From contig NZ_CP042912.1 of assembly GCF_008087665.1 (NCBI RefSeq), positions 5,518,001 to 5,582,000 of the forward strand: a stretch of DNA of 64,000 nucleotides, written 5' to 3'. Numbering within the stretch: position 1 is the first letter of the stretch; each line of letters begins with the position of its first letter. The translations under genes were made by a program, and so were the position numbers. Of the stretch, positions 15,890 to 24,866 are shown piece by piece. The notes under the pieces are model-generated. The model was not told the DNA's origin and made no database searches. It saw only the letters and a list, made by a program, of their open reading frames with translations. The stretch comes from Mariniblastus fucicola (GTDB lineage: Bacteria > Planctomycetota > Planctomycetia > Pirellulales > Pirellulaceae).

Positions 15890-18676
15890 TTAATCGCGGT
15901 AACCCCGGTCACCACCGCCACTGCTGCGACCACCGCCGCCGTCACGCGAACGACCGCCGCCACCGCCGCCTGAACCGCCACGGCCGCGTCCACCGCTGCG
16001 ACCACGGCCTCGACCGCCGCCGCCACGAGGACGATCATAGTCTCCGCCACCGCCGCCCGAGCCACCTCGGTTGCCGCGATCACCTTCTGTGCGTTCACCG
16101 CGATCACTATCGCTGCGTCCACCACGATCACTATCGCCACGACCGCGTCCGCCGCGATCACTGTCGCTGCGTCCACCACGATCGCTATCGCCACGACTAC
16201 GACCACCTCGGTCACTATCGCTACGACCCCGACCACCTCGGTCACTGTCGCTACGACCACGACCACCTCGGTCACTATCGCTACGGCCTCCACGATCGCT
16301 GTCGCCGCGTCCGCCACGATCGCTGTCTCCACGGCCACCGCGACCACGTCCACCGCCGCCGCCACTGCGACCGCGTCCACCACGGTCTCCGCCGCCACTG
16401 CGACCACGACCACCGCCGCCACCGCTGCGACCACGATCACTTCCGCCACGACCACCTCGGTCGCCACCGCGATCACGATCTGAGCGTCCGCCGCGATCAT
16501 TGTCGTCGCCTTCATCGTCGCCGTCGAAGTCATCGTCGCTTCCGCCATCGAAATCGTCGTTGTCTTCCTCTTCGGCGAATTCGTCTTCGAGACCAAGCTC
16601 TTCCAAAGCACGACGACGGCTGAGCTTGACGCGATCGTTGCCATCGACATCGATCACGAGAACTTTCATCTCATCGCCAACGGTGCAAACGTCTGAAACA
16701 TCACTGATGTAGCCGTTAGAAAGTTCGCTGATGTGACACAATCCGTCACGACCAGGAAGGATCTCAACAAAGGCACCGAATTCTTTGGTGCTGCTGACAA
16801 CGCCATCGTAGATCTTGCCGACCTGAACCGTTGCCGTGCAAGCTTCAACTTTCTTGAGTGCGATATCAGCGAGTTCGCCGTTGGTACCGGAAATTGTTAC
16901 CTTGCCGTCTTCAGCAACTTCGATAACGGTTTCTGTTTCTTCCTGAATGGCACGAATGTTCTTTCCGCCAGGACCGATCAGCATGCCGATCTTGTCAGAC
17001 TGAATCTGAGTCTGCAGCAAGCGTGGAGCGTACTGAGAAAGTGATTCTGCCGGACGTGGCTTGGCCGTCAGCATCTTGCGAAGGATCTCAAGGCGAGCTT
17101 CTTTCGATTGAGCCAGCGCGTCTTTGATCAAGTCGTTGCTGATTCCGCGAATTTTCAGGTCCAGCTGGATGCCAGTGATACCTTTTTGCGAACCAGCGAC
17201 CTTGAAGTCCATGTCGCCGAAGTGATCTTCGCTGCCCAGAATGTCGGTCAGCAAAACGTGGCGATCGTCTTCTTTGACCAGGCCAACTGAGATACCAGCA
17301 ACCGGGTTTTTGATTTTTACGCCAGTCGCCATCAGGGCCAAAGTCGTACCGCAAACTGTCGCCATGGAAGACGAACCGTTTGATTCAAGGATGTCCGACA
17401 CAACGCGAATTGTGTACGGGAAATCGTCAACATCTGGCAGCACAGGCTTGATCGAGCGTTCCGCCAAAGCACCATGGCCAATTTCGCGACGACCAGGGCC
17501 GCGAATCGGACGACACTCACCAACGCTGAAGCTTGGGAAGTTGTAGTCCAACATGAATTTCTTGGAGTACTCGTCCTGCAAGCCGTCGACACGCTGTTCG
17601 TCACGTCCGGTTCCCAGCGTGACCGTGATCATCGCCTGAGTTTCACCGCGTTGGAAAACGGCCGAACCGTGAACGCGAGGAATGACGTCGACGTGGCATT
17701 CGATGTCACGAAGGTCATCCAGACCGCGACCGTCAGTACGCTTGCCGTCGAGGATCGATTCGCGGATGACAGCAGCTTCAAGTTTGTAGAGTGCTTTCTT
17801 GAGAGCATCCGCACAGATTGCATTATCTGCTTCCGGGTCCGGAATCATCTCAGCGATGACTTTGTCCTTGAACTCGGACTTCGCCGCGCCGCGGTCTTTC
17901 TTGGAAGGCGTCAGGATGGCTTCGCTGAATCCGTCGAAATATTTGGCTTTGACTTTTTCGAACAGTCCGTTGTCCGAAGGCGACTCGAATTTGACTTTTT
18001 CGACAGGGAATTTATCCGCCAGCTCACGCATCAGCCCGATGACTTCTTTGCAAATGCCATGAGCGAATTCGATTGCGGCCAGCATGTCGTCTTCGGCGAC
18101 TTCGCGAGCGAAGCCTTCGATCATGGTGACGGCACCGTCGGTGCCGGACACGATGATGTCCATGTCGCTTTCTTCGAGTTGCTCGAAGGTCGGGAACGCA
18201 ACGAATTCACCATCGACGCGACCAACGCGAGTGGAAGCAACAGCGTCTTCAAACGGCAATGCCGAGATAAAACAGGCTGCTGCAACGCCGTTCATGGCCA
18301 GCACGTCGCCGTCGTTTTGACGATCGCTTGAAAGCACGAACGACTGACATTGAACTTCGTCCTTGAAGCCATCGGCGAACATTGGACGAATGGGACGGTC
18401 GATCAAACGAGCCGTCAACGTTTCCTTGGTCGTTGGTCGGCCTTCACGTTTCATGAATCCGCCAGGGAACTTACCCGCTGCGATCGTTCGCTCGCGGTAA
18501 TCACACATCAGGGGGAAGAAATCCAGTCCTGGTCGCGGTGCTCCGGTGGCCGCTGTGCAAATCACGGAAGTTTCGCCGTACTGAATAACAACGGCCGCGG
18601 CAGCAAGCTTCGCGAGCTGTCCGGTTTCGAGCGACATCGTTTGGTCGCCAATTTTCTTTTCTACTCTTACTTTCAC
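15890..18676 (-). CDS. pnp: Polyribonucleotide nucleotidyltransferase (PNPase) with long RG-rich tail
   Basis: 928 residues from GTG 18676; typical PNPases have about 700. Two RNase PH domains (with the FPLMCDYRERTIAAGKFPGG and GTGRDEQRVDGL regions) precede the KH domain (KIGMLIGPGGKNIRAIQEE) and the S1 domain (GKIYDGVVSSTKEFGAFVEI, then GRDGLCHISEL). From about residue 705, an acidic patch is followed by about 220 residues of SDRGGRGR-type repeats ending GGGDRGYRD. PNPase degrades RNA 3'-to-5' with phosphate and joins the degradosome. The RG tail is like RNA-binding RGG boxes and may retain or cluster RNA; that is inference. Gene order rpsO-pnp is the classic bacterial order. Confidence 0.97.
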   Translation of the reverse strand: MKVRVEKKIGDQTMSLETGQLAKLAAAAVVIQYGETSVICTAATGAPRPGLDFFPLMCDYRERTIAAGKFPGGFMKREGRPTTKETLTARLIDRPIRPMFADGFKDEVQCQSFVLSSDRQNDGDVLAMNGVAAACFISALPFEDAVASTRVGRVDGEFVAFPTFEQLEESDMDIIVSGTDGAVTMIEGFAREVAEDDMLAAIEFAHGICKEVIGLMRELADKFPVEKVKFESPSDNGLFEKVKAKYFDGFSEAILTPSKKDRGAAKSEFKDKVIAEMIPDPEADNAICADALKKALYKLEAAVIRESILDGKRTDGRGLDDLRDIECHVDVIPRVHGSAVFQRGETQAMITVTLGTGRDEQRVDGLQDEYSKKFMLDYNFPSFSVGECRPIRGPGRREIGHGALAERSIKPVLPDVDDFPYTIRVVSDILESNGSSSMATVCGTTLALMATGVKIKNPVAGISVGLVKEDDRHVLLTDILGSEDHFGDMDFKVAGSQKGITGIQLDLKIRGISNDLIKDALAQSKEARLEILRKMLTAKPRPAESLSQYAPRLLQTQIQSDKIGMLIGPGGKNIRAIQEETETVIEVAEDGKVTISGTNGELADIALKKVEACTATVQVGKIYDGVVSSTKEFGAFVEILPGRDGLCHISELSNGYISDVSDVCTVGDEMKVLVIDVDGNDRVKLSRRRALEELGLEDEFAEEEDNDDFDGGSDDDFDGDDEGDDNDRGGRSDRDRGGDRGGRGGSDRGRSGGGGGRGRSGGGDRGGRGRSGGGGGRGRGGRGDSDRGGRGDSDRGGRSDSDRGGRGRSDSDRGGRGRSDSDRGGRSRGDSDRGGRSDSDRGGRGRGDSDRGGRSDSDRGERTEGDRGNRGGSGGGGGDYDRPRGGGGRGRGRSGGRGRGGSGGGGGGRSRDGGGGRSSGGGDRGYRD

Positions 18677-19050
18677 AATTCGTTCCTGTACTAAGGATTA
18701 TCTATCAATCAATCATTCAAACAATTTGGTTGCTTCAAAAGCGTGCAATCAACGCTACAGAACCGTAAAGAAACGGATCGCTCTGACTCAAAGCGGAAAT
18801 GAACTTGCGCAGCCACGAAATATGACTTAAGAGAAGCACAAGTTGGGGCCATTCCATTTGGCACGAAGACGTTCCTGCCGAAGGAACCTGGTCACAAGGA
18901 AATTGTTCGCACAAAACGACAACGCATTGCTTTGTCAAAGAATCACAAAGCAGTTAAGGGAGTCGAAGTGTCGCGACATCACGGAGGTCACGAAGCCAGT
19001 TCAAAAAACAAAGCGGACTCCACAATAACTGAAGTCCGCAAGTGACTGGC
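18677..19050. other. Intergenic region between rpsO and pnp
   Basis: This 374-base gap holds the rpsO terminator at 19003-19039. The remainder carries the presumed pnp leader and promoter, but I cannot assign a promoter confidently and see no gene in it. Confidence 0.5.
19003..19039 (-). terminator. Terminator after rpsO
   Basis: On the minus strand, stem GCGGACTTCA/TGGAGTCCGC (10 bp, one G-T wobble) with a 7-base loop is followed by TTTGTTTTTTG. It begins about 12 bases after the rpsO stop, so pnp probably has its own promoter or receives read-through. Confidence 0.8.
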
Positions 19051-19320
19051 TTATTTACGAATTCCGAGACGCTCAAGGAGGTCAAGGTAACGATCAGGAT
19101 CATGATCACGGACATAGTCCAGCAAACGACGACGGCGCGAGACCATCCCAAGGAGGCCACGTCGTGTCGAGTAATCTTTGGGGTTGGCTCGCATGTGTTC
19201 TGTCAAGCTATTGATTCGCTTGGTCAGAATTGCGATCTGGACATCGGGAGAACCGTTGTCCTTATCATTCTTCTGGAATTCCCCAATGACTTCTGCTTTT
19301 GCTTCTTTCGTGATGGTCAT
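19051..19320 (-). CDS. rpsO: 30S ribosomal protein S15
   Basis: This 89-residue protein has the standard S15 length and conserved segments: GSPDVQIAILTKRINSLTEH, HPKDYSTRRGL-like NPKDYSTRRGLL, and RRRRLLDYV. It binds 16S rRNA helices in the central domain of the small subunit. ATG at 19320. It precedes pnp on the same strand, as in many bacteria. Confidence 0.97.
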   Translation of the reverse strand: MTITKEAKAEVIGEFQKNDKDNGSPDVQIAILTKRINSLTEHMRANPKDYSTRRGLLGMVSRRRRLLDYVRDHDPDRYLDLLERLGIRK

Positions 19321-19888
19321 ATTTACTGTCTTACTGATTACCCTGTCGCGGTCATCCGAGCCTTTGCCAACAATTTGGCGATCCGAACACCTACAATCTT
19401 TTTCCTAACAGGCTCTTCGTTTTCTTTCTGGGTCCAATACGGTCACATTACTACTTCACAACACACCGACGCGATCGATTCTTACGTTCGAGTCGAGCCA
19501 AGATGATACTGATTGACCTATTTGCGCCAAGAAGAGAAATGCTGGCTAGCCCCATTTAAAGTAATGTTGCTCCGCCCGATTGGAACTTAAATCATCGTAG
19601 AAACCGGACGATATCGAGAGTCGGAATCTCAAAGCCGTCAGATTTTCCCGAAAAACTTCGTGTTCCGAGATGCGAAATGGCACCCGAACTCAGATTTCTG
19701 GCTGATTCCTGGTTAAATGTGGCCGAGATTTATAGGTAATACGGTGCTGCAGCAAGTCGCTGCGGTCCTATCGCTTACACTTACTGGCGGTTCTGTAGGC
19801 TGCGGGCTGCGTTTTACGGTTGCCTGGTTTTGGGTTGGCGGAACCATCAAGTGAACTTTTTTACCTAATCTCTACTTGGAGAAACACA
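19321..19888. other. Intergenic region between divergent rpsO and selenoprotein gene
   Basis: 568 bases without a convincing reading frame in either direction. It must contain the divergent promoters of rpsO and the HMA-domain lipoprotein gene. I see no clear hairpin, repeat or RNA gene. Confidence 0.5.
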
Positions 19889-20278
19889 ATGCGACTACTT
19901 CGCTTAGTTGCTGTTGTCTGTATGGCAGCAGTTAGCGTGGCGAGTCTTGGTTGCGGTGAAACGAAGGAAGCACCTGCTCCGCCGGCGGATACGCCAGCAG
20001 CAACGAGCAGCAGTACTCCGTCGACCACCGACGCACCTGAGACCGCTACCACAGGCACGACTGCGGTCAGCCTGACGATCACAGGAATGGTCTGAGCAGG
20101 CGGCTGAGGCGCCAAAGTTACCGAAGCTTTGGACAAGCTGGCTCTACCGGGTGTAGAGTTTGACCTGAACGGTTCCACATTGATGCTCAAAGGAGACAAT
20201 GTTGGTCCCGAATCGATTGAAAAAATCAAAGAAGCAATTAAAGCTCTTAATTTTGGGTGCGAAGAAAAGTCCGCCTAA
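19889..20278 (+). CDS. Lipoprotein with HMA metal-binding domain containing two predicted selenocysteines (U-A-G-G-U)
   Basis: 129 residues from ATG 19889 (GGAG site 7 bases upstream) to TAA 20276-20278, with in-frame TGA codons at 20093-20095 (codon 69) and 20105-20107 (codon 73). A lipoprotein signal ends in ASLGC (lipidated Cys 22), followed by a Pro/Ala/Thr/Ser-rich linker to about residue 58. The rest reads as a heavy-metal-associated domain: SLTITGMV, U, AGG, U, GAKVTEALDKL, then LPGVEFDL, STLMLKGDNVGPESIEKIKEAI and KALNFGC. HMA domains bind soft metals through two Cys after a GM motif; here both fall at UGA. The spacing UxxxU is one longer than the usual CxxC. The frame and family signature persist for 57 codons past the first UGA. 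Likely binds or reduces a soft metal or disulfide outside the cytoplasm; the target is unknown. A pseudogene with two stops exactly at both metal ligands is improbable. Confidence 0.85.
20093..20158 (+). promoter_or_regulatory. Two UGA-Sec codons with candidate SECIS hairpins
   Basis: Three possible hairpins follow the UGAs at 20093 and 20105. First, stem CCAAAG/CTTTGG (20112-20117 with 20127-20132), 22 bases from loop start to the first UGA's end. Second, overlapping and mutually exclusive, AGCTT/AAGCT with loop TGGAC (20125-20139), whose loop is 34 bases after the first and 22 after the second UGA, so one element could serve both. Third, CTCTAC/GTAGAG with loop CGGGT (20142-20158), 40 bases after the second UGA. 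Which one acts cannot be decided by eye. Confidence 0.5.
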
Positions 20279-20753
20279 AACTGGTGCATCACTTGCTGAT
20301 TTACCAAACCTGTTGGTTTTAGCGAATGTATGACGCTTTTTACCAATACCTGAATCATCCTGATTCAAACGAACATCCTTTCTGTGAGAAATCACAGAGA
20401 GGATTTTTCGTGCGCGTCCTGCACCATGGCCCTGGAACTTTTTCCCGGACCACCTGGCGTTCGCGAGGCCGCGACATGAACTCGGCAACTTTTTGGGACG
20501 CAACCATCTGTTTGTGACGAAGTTGCGGAGTTGCGAAACCTGCGGTTGGAAATCAGGTTTAATAACGGTTGAGGGCTTCTTTCGAATTGCGACGGCTTGC
20601 AGAGGCAAACTGTCCTCAAATCACGTGCTTTTAGGGGTTAGAGCAGCTCCATCAGCCGATTTTCTGGTTGTGTACGTGAGTTTCTGAATAGAATCGCACC
20701 TTGCTCTTTTCCACCATTCATCTTCATTCTTGCGGATTCGTCCGAGGCTTGCC
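20279..20753. other. Intergenic region after the double-UGA gene
   Basis: 475 bases with a strong terminator at 20375-20408 and, beyond it, the presumed promoter region of the efflux adaptor gene. No further gene is apparent. Confidence 0.5.
20375..20408 (+). terminator. Strong rho-independent terminator
   Basis: A 13-bp stem ATCCTTTCTGTGA/TCACAGAGAGGAT with one G-T wobble closes a GAAA tetraloop and runs into TTTTT. It ends the HMA selenoprotein transcript about 100 bases after its stop, separating it from the efflux genes. Confidence 0.9.
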
Positions 20754-22589
20754 ATGAACCGTCAACGAACTCATCGTCGTGGCGTCGTATCGTCCGTGCT
20801 CCTGGTTGGAGCAGCCATTTGCGCGATCATCGGCGCGATCGCCTGGTTTTACTTCAATACAGGATCTTCGACTCCCAATCTCAACCTGATGACTGCCAAA
20901 GTCGAGCGTGGCAGTTTCGTGGCCAAGGTGCTCGATCAGGGCGAAGTCCAAAGTAGCGAGAACGTCGAGATTCGCTGCGAAGTACGTGCTCGCAACGGTC
21001 AACTGACCGTGATCAGCCTGGTGACCGAAGGAACCAAGGTCGAAGCAGGCGATTTCCTGGTGCGACTGGACTCGACGGCTTTTGAGCAGGAACGCGAAAG
21101 CCAACGCATCGCTGTCGCCAACGCCAAAGCGAACGTCATCCAGGCGGACGCAAATCTGAAGACCGCTCAAACGACGCTGAAAGAGTTCGAAGAAGGAACG
21201 TACAAGGCTCAGGTGCAGGACATCGTCAATCAGATCACTGACGCCGAGGGCCTGATCAAGACTTCCGAATCGGAATTGCTCCAGTCGGAAGACGTGCTGA
21301 AGAACAGCATGGAACTTCAGGCAAAGGGCTTTATCACCAGTCGCCAACTGGAATCTGATCAGTTCGCAGTCGATCGTGCCAAGCTGGCGTTGAAGCGAAA
21401 CAAAAACATTCTCGATTTGGCAAAGCAGAACCTGACTGTGCTGGAAAAGTACACGCTGGAAAAAGAAACCGTTCAGCTCAAGAGCAATATCGAAGCAGCG
21501 CTGGTGAAACTGGAATCTGAAAAAGACGCCCTTCGCGTGCAGGAACGCCAGATGGCTGAAATCGAAGAGATGATTACGAAATGCGAAGTCGTCGTTCCTG
21601 AAGGAGTCTCTGGTCAGGTCGTTTATGCCAAGGAGCAGCGTGGTCGCGGTGGCGACGAATGGATCCTCGAAGAAGGTGCCAACGTTCGTGAATCACAAGT
21701 TCTGATTCGACTCCCCGACACCACCAAGATGGAAGTCAAGGCACTGGTGAACGAGCAGAACATTACGCAGATCGAAACTGGCATGCCGTGCTCGATCAAG
21801 GTCGACGCGTTGACTGACAAAACACTTAAAGGCGTCGTGACGAAAGTGAATGCGTACGCCGAGTCCGCCGGCTGGGGTGGCTCATCGGTTCGAAAGTACG
21901 CCGTTAAAGTTCGCATCTTTGATCCACCAGAAGCTCTCAAGCCTGGCATGAATGCTTCGGTTTCGATTCAAACGAAGTATCAGGAAGATGCCTTGATGGT
22001 CCCCATTCAAACCATTTACGGTGTACAGGAACGTCAGTTCTGCCTCGCAAAAGTCGGCGAACGGTATGAGACTCGCGAGATCAAAATCGGCGGTAACAAT
22101 TCACAGATGGCTCTGGTTTTGGAAGGCCTTGAAGAAGGCGAGGAACTGGTCATGAATCCGGGTGCCCAGAAGGACCTGATGGAACTCCCTGAAGTGAAAC
22201 TGGACAAGCGAATCGACATTCCGGAAGAGGAAGCCAAACGTGCTGCGGATGATGCGGCCAAAGCGGCTCCCGAAAAAGAGGCTACTGGCGGCCCTCCCGG
22301 TGGACAAGGTGGTGCTCCAGATCCTACGGCGATTGCTGACAGGGTGATGCAACGGTCGGACACCAACGGCGATGGAAAACTTGACAAAACGGAAATCGCC
22401 AATTTGGACGATCGTTCCAAGTCTTGGGCGGGTACGGCGGACAAAAATGGAGACGGCGACATCTCGAAAGAAGAAGTGGTTAACGCCATGAAGAAAGTCA
22501 TGAAGTCGTTTGGCGGAGGCCGACCAGGCGGCGGAGGTCGACAAGGCGGCGGCGGAGGAGGTCGCCCTGGTGGCGGAGGCGGTCGCTAG
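20754..22589 (+). CDS. Efflux periplasmic adaptor (MacA/HlyD family) with C-terminal EF-hands and Gly-rich tail
   Basis: 611 residues from ATG 20754; a TTG at 20730 would add eight residues. One N-terminal membrane helix (about 14-32) is followed by a lipoyl-like half (VEAGDFLVRLDST), a long helical hairpin (about 100-260) and beta-barrel strands (MEVKALVNEQNI, GMPCSIKVDAL, LKPGMNASVSI). It would link the inner-membrane transporter encoded next to an outer-membrane channel. Unusually, two EF-hand loops, DTNGDGKLDKTE and DKNGDGDISKEE, and an Arg/Gly-rich end follow the adaptor proper. The ABC ATPase gene starts 136 bases downstream. Confidence 0.9.
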   Translation: MNRQRTHRRGVVSSVLLVGAAICAIIGAIAWFYFNTGSSTPNLNLMTAKVERGSFVAKVLDQGEVQSSENVEIRCEVRARNGQLTVISLVTEGTKVEAGDFLVRLDSTAFEQERESQRIAVANAKANVIQADANLKTAQTTLKEFEEGTYKAQVQDIVNQITDAEGLIKTSESELLQSEDVLKNSMELQAKGFITSRQLESDQFAVDRAKLALKRNKNILDLAKQNLTVLEKYTLEKETVQLKSNIEAALVKLESEKDALRVQERQMAEIEEMITKCEVVVPEGVSGQVVYAKEQRGRGGDEWILEEGANVRESQVLIRLPDTTKMEVKALVNEQNITQIETGMPCSIKVDALTDKTLKGVVTKVNAYAESAGWGGSSVRKYAVKVRIFDPPEALKPGMNASVSIQTKYQEDALMVPIQTIYGVQERQFCLAKVGERYETREIKIGGNNSQMALVLEGLEEGEELVMNPGAQKDLMELPEVKLDKRIDIPEEEAKRAADDAAKAAPEKEATGGPPGGQGGAPDPTAIADRVMQRSDTNGDGKLDKTEIANLDDRSKSWAGTADKNGDGDISKEEVVNAMKKVMKSFGGGRPGGGGRQGGGGGGRPGGGGGR

Positions 22590-22725
22590 ACCCAGTTTCA
22601 GAACCCAAGTTTGTAGAACTGGCTACGAAAAGTATGCAATTTCGCCTGAAGGCGGTGCTACGAACGGATCGCCTCAGTTTTGCAACGGGTTCTAGTCAAC
22701 TCACTTCTGCATCAGGTTCAAGTTC

Positions 22726-23523
22726 ATGTCATCCACAATCGACCCGAAAACCAAACCAAAACTCGCGGCACAAATTCGCGACCTCACCAAGCATTACGTG
22801 CTCAAGAGTGAAACAGTCCGAGCACTACGCGGAGTCTCATTTGATGTTCCCGAAGGAGACTACGTCGCCATCATGGGTCCGTCCGGATCCGGGAAAAGTA
22901 CACTGCTGAACCTGCTGGGGTGTCTCGATCGCCCGACCAGCGGTTCTTTCATGCTTGGCGGTGACGACGTTGCTCGCATGACGGACGATGAACTTTCAGG
23001 TATCCGTGCGTCGCGGATTGGTTTCGTGTTTCAATCGTACAATCTGATCGCCCAACTGAGCGTTGTGGAGAACATTGAAGTTCCCCTGTATTACATGGGA
23101 CGTCTCACGCGTGAGTCCCGCAAACGCAGCACTGCTCTGGCCGCCATGGTTGGACTTGGGCAGCGTCTCGACCATCGCCCGACTCAGCTTTCTGGTGGTC
23201 AACAACAACGCGTCGCGATCGCCCGCTCGTTGGTCAACGATCCCTACTTCATCCTTGCCGACGAAGCGACAGGCAACCTTGACTCGGTGACAACCGAAGA
23301 AATCCTGGCTCTTTTCCAGCGGCTTAACGATGAAGGCCGAACGATCATTATGGTGACGCACGAAGACGAAGTCGCCGAGCATGCGAAACGGATCATTCGA
23401 CTGAAAGACGGCAATGTTCAAGTCGACGAACCGATCGAGGATCGCAAAACGTTCTCGCCTGAGCAGATTGAGCAAATCTCAAAGAACGCCCATCTCGCGA
23501 ACCAACCTGACGAGGGGAACTAG
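22726..23523 (+). CDS. ABC transporter ATP-binding protein, MacB/LolD type
   Basis: 265 residues from ATG 22726. It has Walker A GPSGSGKST, a Q-loop in FVFQSYNLIAQLSV, signature LSGGQQQR, Walker B FILADEATGNLD and the H-loop MVTHEDE. The MacB/LolD subgroup drives mechanotransmission transporters that work on periplasmic substrates. It is followed two bases later by the permease gene and preceded by the adaptor, so the three form a MacAB-like efflux or lipoprotein-handling system; the outer-membrane channel is not here. Confidence 0.93.
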   Translation: MSSTIDPKTKPKLAAQIRDLTKHYVLKSETVRALRGVSFDVPEGDYVAIMGPSGSGKSTLLNLLGCLDRPTSGSFMLGGDDVARMTDDELSGIRASRIGFVFQSYNLIAQLSVVENIEVPLYYMGRLTRESRKRSTALAAMVGLGQRLDHRPTQLSGGQQQRVAIARSLVNDPYFILADEATGNLDSVTTEEILALFQRLNDEGRTIIMVTHEDEVAEHAKRIIRLKDGNVQVDEPIEDRKTFSPEQIEQISKNAHLANQPDEGN

Positions 23524-23525
23524 CC

Positions 23526-24866
23526 ATGCTTTCTCTTCGCACCTGGATTTTGGGCGTCAAAAGCCTGCTGCTGCACCCGATGCGGTCAGCGCTGACGATT
23601 CTTGGTATTTTCATCGGCGTAGCCAGCGTGATCTGGCTGTTGGCGATCGGGGAAGGTATCAGCCAGGAAGCTCAAAAGCAGATTGAAGAATTGGGCGCCG
23701 AGAACATTATCGTTCGCTCGATCAAGCCACCGGACGACGCCGGGGCAAGCGTGCGGAACGTCGACCTGTACGGTGTCACCCGTGCTGAAATGGCAACGAT
23801 CGAGATGACGATTCCGACCGTTGAACAAGTCGTTCCCGTCCGGGAACTGAAACAGAAATTCATCTACGCCGGAAACCAGAACGCGACGCCGCTCGATGGT
23901 CGATTGGTCGGTTGCTCTCCGGCCTATGCCGAGGTGACCAAGCTCAAAACGGCGCGCGGAAGATTCATATCTTCTACTGATGTGGAAACCAATGACTCTG
24001 TTTGCGTGATCGCTGCCGTGCTGGCCCGCAAACTTTTCCCATCGGAAGATCCGTTGGAGAAAGCCGTTTTTCTGCCAGAGAAGAAAGAGTACTTCAAGGT
24101 TGTCGGCGTACTCGAACCGAGGAATGCAACCGCAGCAATCGGGGGCTCGCTGGCCGCGCAGGATTTCTCTCTCGACGTCTACATCCCGATCACCACGATG
24201 CGGGTCAAGATGGGAGACGAGGAAACTCGACGGGCATCCGGTAGCTTTAGCCGTGAACTGTTCGAGCTCTCCCAAATCACGATCGAAGTCAAGTCTCCCG
24301 AGGAAGTCCCGCGTACTGCCGAAATCATCGAAGCGACATTGCGCATGAACGATGATCAGCGTCAGGACATTGCCGTGATTGTTCCATACGAATTGCTTGA
24401 ACAGGCGAAAACAACGCGGCTGATGTTTATGATGTTCATGGGACTGATCGCCGCAATTTCACTGATCGTTGGTGGTATTGGCATTATGAACATCATGCTC
24501 GCCACCGTGACAGAGCGGACCCGGGAAATCGGAATTCGACGTGCACTTGGTGGCAAACGCAGTGATATCACGAACCAGTTCCTCGTGGAAACCATCTCTT
24601 TGTCTGTGGTCGGCGGTGTGATTGGGATCCTTGTCGGACTGCTGTGCCCGTTGACCATTCGGTTGGCACGGGCGGCGTTTCAGCGAGTTCAACCTGACAT
24701 GTATGCCAATCTTCCCGACGTCGCCAAGGTAATGGAGCCGCAAATTGTCACGATGTCGATTCCGCTGGCGTTCGGAATCTCAGTTGTCGTCGGCGTCCTG
24801 TTCGGACTATACCCGGCCATTCGGGCAGCCAAAATGGACCCGATCGAAGCTCTTCGTCACGAGTAA
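23526..24866 (+). CDS. ABC transporter permease, MacB family
   Basis: 446 residues with the MacB layout: an N-terminal membrane helix (LTILGIFIGVASVIWLLAI), a periplasmic domain of about 230 residues and three C-terminal helices containing the FtsX segment. The segment GGIGIMNIMLATVTERTREI is diagnostic for MacB-like permeases, and the end IRAAKMDPIEALRHE is typical. It pairs with the ATPase two bases upstream. Cargo could be a peptide, a drug-like molecule or a lipoprotein; not decidable. Confidence 0.93.
   Translation: MLSLRTWILGVKSLLLHPMRSALTILGIFIGVASVIWLLAIGEGISQEAQKQIEELGAENIIVRSIKPPDDAGASVRNVDLYGVTRAEMATIEMTIPTVEQVVPVRELKQKFIYAGNQNATPLDGRLVGCSPAYAEVTKLKTARGRFISSTDVETNDSVCVIAAVLARKLFPSEDPLEKAVFLPEKKEYFKVVGVLEPRNATAAIGGSLAAQDFSLDVYIPITTMRVKMGDEETRRASGSFSRELFELSQITIEVKSPEEVPRTAEIIEATLRMNDDQRQDIAVIVPYELLEQAKTTRLMFMMFMGLIAAISLIVGGIGIMNIMLATVTERTREIGIRRALGGKRSDITNQFLVETISLSVVGGVIGILVGLLCPLTIRLARAAFQRVQPDMYANLPDVAKVMEPQIVTMSIPLAFGISVVVGVLFGLYPAIRAAKMDPIEALRHE

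What the first reader, a model, noticed from the sequence alone, without database searches (positions are those of the whole stretch)
19889..20278. Double-selenocysteine HMA lipoprotein: both metal ligands encoded by UGA
In-frame UGA codons 69 and 73 stand exactly where a heavy-metal-associated domain carries its two cysteines after the GM motif (seen). Frame and family pattern continue for 57 codons to a TAA (seen). TGA is an ordinary stop in several neighbouring genes, so the code is not reassigned. HMA domains bind soft metals through paired Cys (known). Replacing both by Sec would give a metal or redox centre of unusual softness and low potential; the UxxxU spacing is also longer than CxxC. 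I know of no described domain with this pair, but cannot search.
Basis: partly seen in the sequence, partly recalled or inferred. Interest (0 to 1): 0.95.

Follow-up and report, generated by a model that had tools for sequence, protein, structure and literature searches.

The report
Double-selenocysteine metal-binding lipoprotein of Planctomycetota
A small surface-anchored protein in planctomycete bacteria appears to carry two atoms of selenium exactly where its relatives hold metal with two sulfur atoms, both written in as UGA codons that seem to share one RNA signal; the gene family looks real and widespread, and related double-selenium proteins have been listed before.

Summary
Confirmed. 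Window 19889-20278 encodes a 129-residue lipoprotein-like protein with in-frame UGA at codons 69 and 73 in an HMA (MerP/CopZ-type) domain. The genome has selA, selB, selD and tRNA-Sec(UCA). In a 30-row alignment both positions are only Cys or Sec. I read UxxxU in 15 genomes of the family, this one included, and in further Planctomycetota, besides UxxxC and CxxxC forms. SelB over cut-off: 27 of 29 TGA-form genomes, 1 of 19 Cys-form genomes. All 22 UxxxU/UxxxC genes read in the family carry an in-frame hairpin with loop CGGGU and covarying stem: a SECIS. Its loop starts 34-40 nt after the second codon and 46-52 nt after the first UGA, against 16-37 nt in the published model, and a second hairpin lies in the gap. 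One SECIS seems to serve two UGAs. Double-Sec HMA-like proteins are already a known kind (NCBIfam NF041115, UxxU), but this protein scores 16 bits there, cut-off 95. So: a new variant. Metal trapping is inferred; fusions to thioredoxin and a DsbD-like stretch hint at redox coupling.

The parts
19889..20278 (+). Double-Sec HMA lipoprotein gene (129 aa, TAA stop)
   Evidence: two UGA read as Sec
19878..19881 (+). GGAG ribosome-binding-site-like motif, 7 nt before ATG
   Evidence: read
19943..19954 (+). Lipobox-like SLGC (Cys22) at the end of the signal peptide
   Evidence: read; Cys at the same place in the TGA-form rows; no predictor run
20069..20272 (+). HMA domain (residues 61-128), predicted beta-alpha-beta-beta-alpha-beta
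   Evidence: AlphaFold model, block means of pLDDT 85-94 over residues 61-129, whole chain 71.8; best PDB match by fold MerP 1osd
20093..20095 (+). UGA codon 69 (Sec69)
   Evidence: Cys or Sec in all 30 rows
20105..20107 (+). UGA codon 73 (Sec73)
   Evidence: Cys or Sec in all 30 rows
20112..20132 (+). Helix 1: CCAAAG...CTTTGG hairpin between the second UGA and the SECIS hairpin
   Evidence: gap region z -2.1, P 0.033 against synonymous recoding; position
20140..20160 (+). SECIS hairpin, loop CGGGU (20148-20152), stem covarying; encodes L-P-G-V
20375..20404 (+). Terminator-like hairpin and T tail: gene looks monocistronic
   Evidence: 3 such sites found in the stretch, 1.6 expected
15890..19320 (-). 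pnp (15890-18676) and rpsO (19051-19320), divergent; pnp also beside the gene in G392, G386 and G385, not in G378 or G395
   Evidence: recognised by sequence, not by a family search
20754..24866 (+). HlyD/CusB-like adaptor, ABC ATPase, FtsX/MacB-like permease downstream, probably their own unit
   Evidence: adaptor by Pfam; ATPase and permease recognised by sequence

Best explanation
The gene encodes an exported, probably lipid-anchored HMA-fold selenoprotein in which both metal ligands are selenocysteine (U69 and U73, UxxxU). Shown by sequence: the frame, the Cys/Sec exchange at both positions, the Sec machinery, and a covarying SECIS hairpin. Inferred: SelB, held by the CGGGU hairpin whose loop starts 40 nt after the second UGA, inserts Sec at both UGAs; helix 1 takes up most of the intervening RNA and so brings the loop within reach. 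Also inferred: the two selenolates form a soft-metal site like that of MerP/CopZ (Hg(II), Cu(I), Ag(I) class) and can close to a diselenide, which is reduced by a thioredoxin/DsbD-type partner; two related proteins carry a thioredoxin domain (one) or a DsbD_N-like stretch (the other) on the same chain.
For: selA 555 bits, selB 356, selD 265, tRNA-Sec 70 bits with anticodon TCA. Positions 69 and 73 invariant Cys/Sec in 30 of 30 aligned sequences. SelB over cut-off in 27 of 29 TGA-form genomes against 1 of 19 Cys-form genomes (Fisher P 4.6e-10, kinship not corrected for). SECIS: 94.6% of pair cells formed, 33 cells with both sides changed, covariation score 0.621, each reached by 0 of 500 shuffles; inner six pairs kept in all 21 distinct rows; Cys homologues at the same place 35.2% paired. 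In-frame CCGGGNGTA in 22 of 22 UxxxU/UxxxC genes of the family, although GTA is used for 50 of 474 Val elsewhere in 37 of these genes and Cys homologues. Helix 1: gap region mean z -2.39 in 23 TGA genes against -0.74 in 15 Cys genes under protein-preserving recoding. HMA fold. Redox link: UxxU-HMA plus thioredoxin in the same genome, UxxxU-HMA plus a DsbD_N-like stretch in G445. Metal link: the double-Sec HMA of L108 lies on an 8-kb stretch with an RND pump and a chromate transporter.
Against: No protein or selenium data. For the window itself the SECIS hairpin is only mildly better than recoded versions (P 0.073; both hairpins together P 0.077), and in G392 the gap helix is not significant (z -0.4). 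In one search two of five measures do not exceed the shuffles (pairs with a change on both sides 417 of 500, further pair types 61 of 500). RNAalifold finds no common helix 1. The distance of the loop is outside the published 16-37 nt for both UGAs of the window gene. The Pfam HMA score of the window protein is below cut-off, and so is the DsbD_N match (21.2 against 25). The gene is not in a metal-resistance operon; neighbouring genes differ between and within genera. Two TGA-form genomes lack a SelB over cut-off (G395, 71% complete; G393, 89%), and one Cys-form genome has one (G366).
Confidence: 0.82

Rival explanations
1. The diselenide/selenol pair is a redox centre (electron carrier or oxidoreductase on an HMA scaffold), not a metal site. 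(Shares the double-Sec reading with the best explanation, so the odds overlap.)
For: UxxU-HMA fused to a thioredoxin domain with CSPC in the same genome; UxxxU-HMA fused to a DsbD_N-like stretch in G445; most families of the marine selenoproteome are thiol-oxidoreductase-like (PMC2398784, passages seen).
Against: The fold and the GM-x-C motif are those of metal carriers; one member lies by an RND pump and ChrA; the fusions can equally serve to keep a metal site reduced.
Confidence: 0.3
2. Only the first UGA is decoded as Sec; the second terminates or is read rarely, so a truncated or mixed product is made.
For: Closely related genes toggle UGA2 to a Cys codon (G385 UxxxU against G267 UxxxC), so one Sec suffices for function; two UGAs lower yield in general (recalled).
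Against: Coding-type substitution continues after UGA2; UxxxU is kept in many lineages; the SECIS lies nearer to UGA2 than to UGA1.
Confidence: 0.08
3. Pseudogene or sequencing artefact with two in-frame stops.
For: A standard reading of the code stops at codon 69 (ORF list).
Against: The same two TGAs in 15 genomes of the family and in other Planctomycetota, constrained codons downstream, covarying hairpin, co-occurrence with SelB.
Confidence: 0.01
4. UGA reassigned (Trp, Gly or Cys code) in this organism.
For: Two in-frame UGAs.
Against: UGA also stops genes (some homologues end in TGA); the tRNA with anticodon TCA in L031 is tRNA-Sec; the positions correspond to Cys. No scan of the whole genome for other UGA-reading tRNAs was made.
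Confidence: 0.01

Closest known systems
NCBIfam NF041115 UxxU_metal_bind (metal-binding (seleno)protein; 'putative mercuric reductase', UxxU, traced by the reviews to the Olavius symbiont selenoproteome)
   Same: HMA-like domain, model of 74 positions, with Sec at both ligand positions (2 Sec in the table of PMC13188914); window protein aligns to it over residues 57-89.
   Different: Spacing UxxU against UxxxU; score 16 bits against cut-off 95 for the window, at most 54 bits among 19 proteins scanned, three of them not listed at the E-value limit used; ours carries a lipoprotein-like signal and linker.
MerP / CopZ / N-terminal HMA domains of CopA, MerA (PF00403)
   Same: Fold and position of the two ligands; best solved structure by fold 1osd MerP.
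   Different: Cys ligands in CxxC; no Sec (recalled; one-residue insertion seen in the alignments).
Sec forms of MerP and MerT and of a cation ATPase listed in PMC2398784 and PMC13188914, and MerT/CopZ fusion-like selenoprotein NF045683
   Same: Sec in metal-transport proteins; Table 2 of PMC2398784 lists two Sec-containing MerP sequences.
   Different: NF045683 is a 235-position fusion model; the ATPase is listed with one Sec (UxxC); the table gives no motif for MerP, so its Sec number is not known to me.
Canonical bacterial SECIS (model in PMC13188914, Fig. 2 legend)
   Same: Small apical loop with G among its first two bases, stem of 6-8 bp in most genes, in the coding region.
   Different: Loop 34-40 nt after UGA2 and 46-52 nt after UGA1 (model: 16-37), with an extra hairpin in the gap; one element for two UGAs.

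Membership tests
Bacterial selenoprotein | Genome has SelA, SelB, SelD, tRNA-Sec | tested here: met
Bacterial selenoprotein | UGA aligned with Cys in homologues | tested here: met
   30 of 30 rows Cys/Sec at both sites
Bacterial selenoprotein | SECIS hairpin downstream of UGA | tested here: met
   covariation; Cys control
Bacterial selenoprotein | SECIS loop 16-37 nt after UGA (published model) | tested here: not met
   40 and 52 nt in the window; in 17 of 22 genes of the family 34 nt (within) after the second codon and 46 nt (outside) after UGA1
Bacterial selenoprotein | Selenium in the protein | not testable with these tools
   needs 75Se or mass spectrometry
HMA domain PF00403 | Profile score over 24.8 bits | tested here: inconclusive
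   window 21.5; 12 of 12 relatives scanned 28.6-50.2
HMA domain PF00403 | beta-alpha-beta-beta-alpha-beta fold | tested here: met
   (predicted model)
HMA domain PF00403 | CxxC ligand spacing | tested here: not met
   UxxxU; Cys relatives CxxxC
NF041115 UxxU_metal_bind | Score over 95 bits | tested here: not met
   16 bits
Lipoprotein | Signal peptide with lipobox Cys | tested here: inconclusive
   SLGC at residues 19-22 read by eye; no predictor available
Mercury or copper resistance system | Gene in a mer/cop operon | tested here: not met
   neighbours read; terminator-like site

The most novel reading that the evidence does not exclude
A long-reach, two-hairpin SECIS: helix 1 folds away the RNA between the UGAs and a CGGGU SelB hairpin, so that one element whose loop lies 46-52 nt downstream of the first UGA decodes two UGAs 12 nt apart. 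It builds a lipid-anchored diselenolate metal trap whose reduction is handed over by thioredoxin/DsbD modules, a selenium-based branch of periplasmic metal handling in Planctomycetota.
Probability: 0.4. Interest if true: 0.85.

Novelty: new variant of a known kind. Interest (0 to 1): 0.72.

Why it matters
It gives a family in which the same two ligands occur as Cys-Cys, Sec-Cys and Sec-Sec in relatives, so that the effect of Sec on soft-metal affinity and redox potential can be measured in one fold. It also stretches the accepted distance rule for bacterial SECIS elements, which would mean that searches built on that rule miss such genes and that a standard reading truncates them at the first UGA.

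Tried and rejected
Reassigned code, pseudogene and chance open frame: rejected. Peptide-pattern search of genome contigs found no relative; the DNA pattern worked. Several hits are not HMA proteins in the matched stretch and were dropped after reading them (L014, L018, L022, L023, L025, L026, L028, L030); L017 and L029 are HMA domains of other proteins. A common column-by-column helix 1 was not found by RNAalifold (predicts only the SECIS stem); I put this down to a register that shifts between genes; its support rests on single-sequence folding. The SECIS model finds only this gene with confidence in the own genome (E 2.9e-5; next 1.97; 150 of 997 candidates were scored), so other selenoproteins there probably use other hairpins. 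The CCGGG-type nonamer is absent from the four UxxC genes of the family read, from the three f3 genes and, among the rows, from 10 of 25 UxxxU and 15 of 22 UxxxC domains, which lie in other families of the phylum or in records of unknown family; they must use other SECIS forms, which I did not work out. L102, a Planctomycetia record of unknown family, has it. L116 was read in a wrong frame and dropped there; its UxxxU frame is. The gene tree of 76 domains has few resolved forks; it needs 12 changes among CxxxC, UxxxC and UxxxU, and starred branches force at least 3 for UxxxU. Literature: searches are listings; of the papers opened I saw passages only (PMC13188914; PMC2398784; PMC1794560; PMC4807772; PMC9312934; PMC12013277). 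PMC1976440 and PMC12013261, the likeliest places for a prior description, are not held, and supplementary tables (such as the selenoprotein list of PMC4807772) could not be read.

Full report
Observation. The frame at 19889-20278 reads MRLLRLVAVV...SLGC...SLTITGMVUAGGUGAKVTEAL...TAA with TGA at codons 69 and 73. A ribosome-binding motif precedes it, a terminator-like hairpin follows it at 20375-20404. Long flanks around two close TGAs are not rare by themselves (7 of 238 such pairs in the window, this gene included), so the case rests on comparison.

Machinery. The window lies in a 6.57-Mb single-contig genome (95% complete). It has SelA (555 bits, over cut-off), SelB (356, over), SelD (265, over) and a tRNA-Sec (70 bits, over) with anticodon TCA.

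Relatives. The search of 296 genomes of the order gave 17 with matches, some of them unrelated on reading. Reading the 24 shows UxxxU in 15 (G000, G264, G323, G378, G392, G395, G386, G385, G326, G401, G324, G325, G343, G212, G445), UxxxC in seven (G436, G464, G393, G469, G467, G267, G388) and UxxC in two (G446, G379); one search adds UxxC in G216 and G188 of the same family and UxxxC in three genomes of f3. CxxxC is seen in the loci without TGA that I read. In a 30-row alignment the two positions are only Cys or Sec. In genome contigs a DNA pattern for GMxU..GUG.K gave 23 stretches; 10 are HMA frames, all from Planctomycetota records (six of them the same contigs as, by length), and 13 are frames without an HMA pattern in other organisms. 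In the phylum search 216 of 392 genomes have a match, many of them ordinary HMA proteins; of these I held 30 loci and fetched 16 more stretches, and found further UxxxU and UxxxC genes. One search, which takes the loci held together, counts 25 UxxxU, 22 UxxxC, 29 CxxxC, 6 UxxC, 3 UxxU and 11 CxxC domains; its filter missed at least L102, L140 and L154, which are UxxxU by eye.

Co-occurrence. I asked for SelB in all 29 genomes with a TGA form and in 19 of the 26 genomes whose Cys-form loci I held. SelB over cut-off: 27 of 29 against 1 of 19 (G366) (Fisher P 4.6e-10; kinship is not corrected for). The two misses are incomplete assemblies (71% and 89%).

Coding constraint. In 14 of 14 pairs of related genes the third codon position has the most differences downstream of the second site (upstream of the first site in 12 of 14), e.g. 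G264/G323 3, 5, 26 and G469/G467 5, 4, 20. The pairs share members, and in several of them amino-acid-changing codons outnumber silent ones, so the protein evolves fast.

SECIS. All 22 UxxxU or UxxxC genes of the family, and L102, have the in-frame nonamer CCGGGNGTA (P-G-V codons) inside a hairpin of loop CGGGU (one gene each with CGGGC and CGGGG). The alignment A2 was made from genes with the nonamer, which fixes the loop, the innermost pair and the 3' side of the next two; the outer pairs are free. They covary: CG/AU/GC, GC/UA/CG and CG/UA/GU/GC at three successive pairs without a single broken cell, 33 cells with both sides changed, 0 of 500 shuffles as high for the share paired, these cells and the covariation score; the counts of pairs with double change and of pair types do not exceed the shuffles (417 and 61 of 500), and the outermost pair is broken in 8 of 21 rows. 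The same columns of 15 Cys homologues pair at 35.2%. The loop begins 34 nt (17 genes), 37 nt (2) or 40 nt (3, the window among them) after the second codon, i.e. 46-52 nt after the first UGA. The review PMC13188914 (passages seen) gives 16-37 nt for most bacterial elements. The f3 genes (UxxxC) lack this hairpin; in L024 the predicted fold has a hairpin with loop GGU 20 nt after its UGA; L020 and L027 have the same letters, but their predicted folds pair otherwise.

Helix 1. RNAfold gives a hairpin of -6.5 to -16.1 kcal/mol in the 27-33 nt between UGA2 (or its Cys codon) and the SECIS stem of 23 genes. Against recoding that keeps the protein, mean z of this gap is -2.39 for 23 TGA genes and -0.74 for 15 Cys genes; P is under 0.05 in 13 of 23 and in 2 of 15. 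The SECIS hairpin by the same test: mean z -1.44 against -0.14, P under 0.05 in 8 of 23 and 1 of 15; both together -1.64 against -0.57. For the window: gap z -2.1 (P 0.033), SECIS hairpin z -1.5 (P 0.073), both together P 0.077. I read helix 1 as a spacer that shortens the path to the SECIS; that is inference.

Protein. The model has block means of pLDDT 85-94 over residues 61-129 (whole chain 71.8, pTM 0.51) and the order E-H-E-E-H-E (30-sequence alignment, Cys in place of Sec). Among solved structures the best matches are MerP, ATP7B and HMA7 by fold and ATP7B, CopA and MerP by sequence profile. A lipobox-like SLGC and a low-complexity linker of about 38 residues precede the domain; no predictor was run.

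Context. The gene stands alone: divergent from rpsO-pnp, before an adaptor-ABC-permease unit with 475 nt between. The pnp linkage recurs in three of the five other UxxxU genomes of the genus (G392, G386, G385; not G378, G395) and is not seen in G264 and G323 of another genus. One relative outside the family, L108, has an AcrB-type pump (930 bits) and a chromate transporter (264 bits) on the same 8 kb. In G445 the UxxxU domain runs on into a stretch with a sub-threshold DsbD_N match. The own genome holds two more Sec-HMA genes: a lipoprotein-like one with UMAU fused to a thioredoxin domain (HMA 33.2, thioredoxin 58.8 bits) and a YceI-HMA protein with UxxC (105.6 and 35.8 bits). The UMAU gene has no full-length relative among the 40 genomes searched, itself apart.

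What is known. NCBIfam NF041115 (UxxU_metal_bind) and the entry 'metal-binding protein (putative mercuric reductase)', UxxU, 2 Sec, in PMC13188914, traced there to a 2007 paper that is not held, show that double-Sec HMA-like proteins are known; PMC2398784 lists two Sec-containing MerP sequences. None of 19 proteins that I scanned reaches the cut-off of NF041115 (at most 54 against 95). Ten searches of the literature library (numbers in Tried and rejected) brought up no description of a UxxxU HMA lipoprotein or of Sec-HMA proteins in Planctomycetota, within the limits told there. PMC4807772 reports selenoproteins in two planctomycetes without naming an HMA protein in the passages seen; its gene list is in a supplement I could not read.

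Verdict. It is a new variant of a known kind; the less expected part is the RNA, a distant, hairpin-bridged SECIS shared by two UGAs.

Noticed in passing
L178:1315-2058 (G000:C1:2437272-2438015): Second double-Sec HMA gene of the same genome: lipoprotein-like, UMAU motif, fused to a thioredoxin domain with CSPC; no full-length relative in the other genomes of a 40-genome search.
   Followed up: partly
L176:820-1701 (around G000:C1:6264740): YceI-domain protein fused to an HMA domain with UxxC (NMTUSGC); by eye a hairpin with its loop about 17 nt after the UGA.
   Followed up: partly
L095:4383-5390 (G445): UxxxU HMA lipoprotein fused to a DsbD_N-like stretch (21.2 bits, cut-off 25).
   Followed up: partly
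L158 (G846:C1:4238500-4243500): Three HMA matches in tandem, two with one TGA (UxxC and UxxxC read in L147) and one without stop.
   Followed up: no
L137, L146, L170: A further HMA gene with UxxU (GMDUGQU) beside the matched HMA gene in three genomes of the phylum.
   Followed up: no
window 15890-16650 (-): PNPase with a long C-terminal tail rich in Arg, Gly, Ser, Asp.
   Followed up: no
window 20754-22589 (+): HlyD/CusB-like adaptor with a C-terminal EF-hand and a Gly/Arg-rich tail.
   Followed up: no
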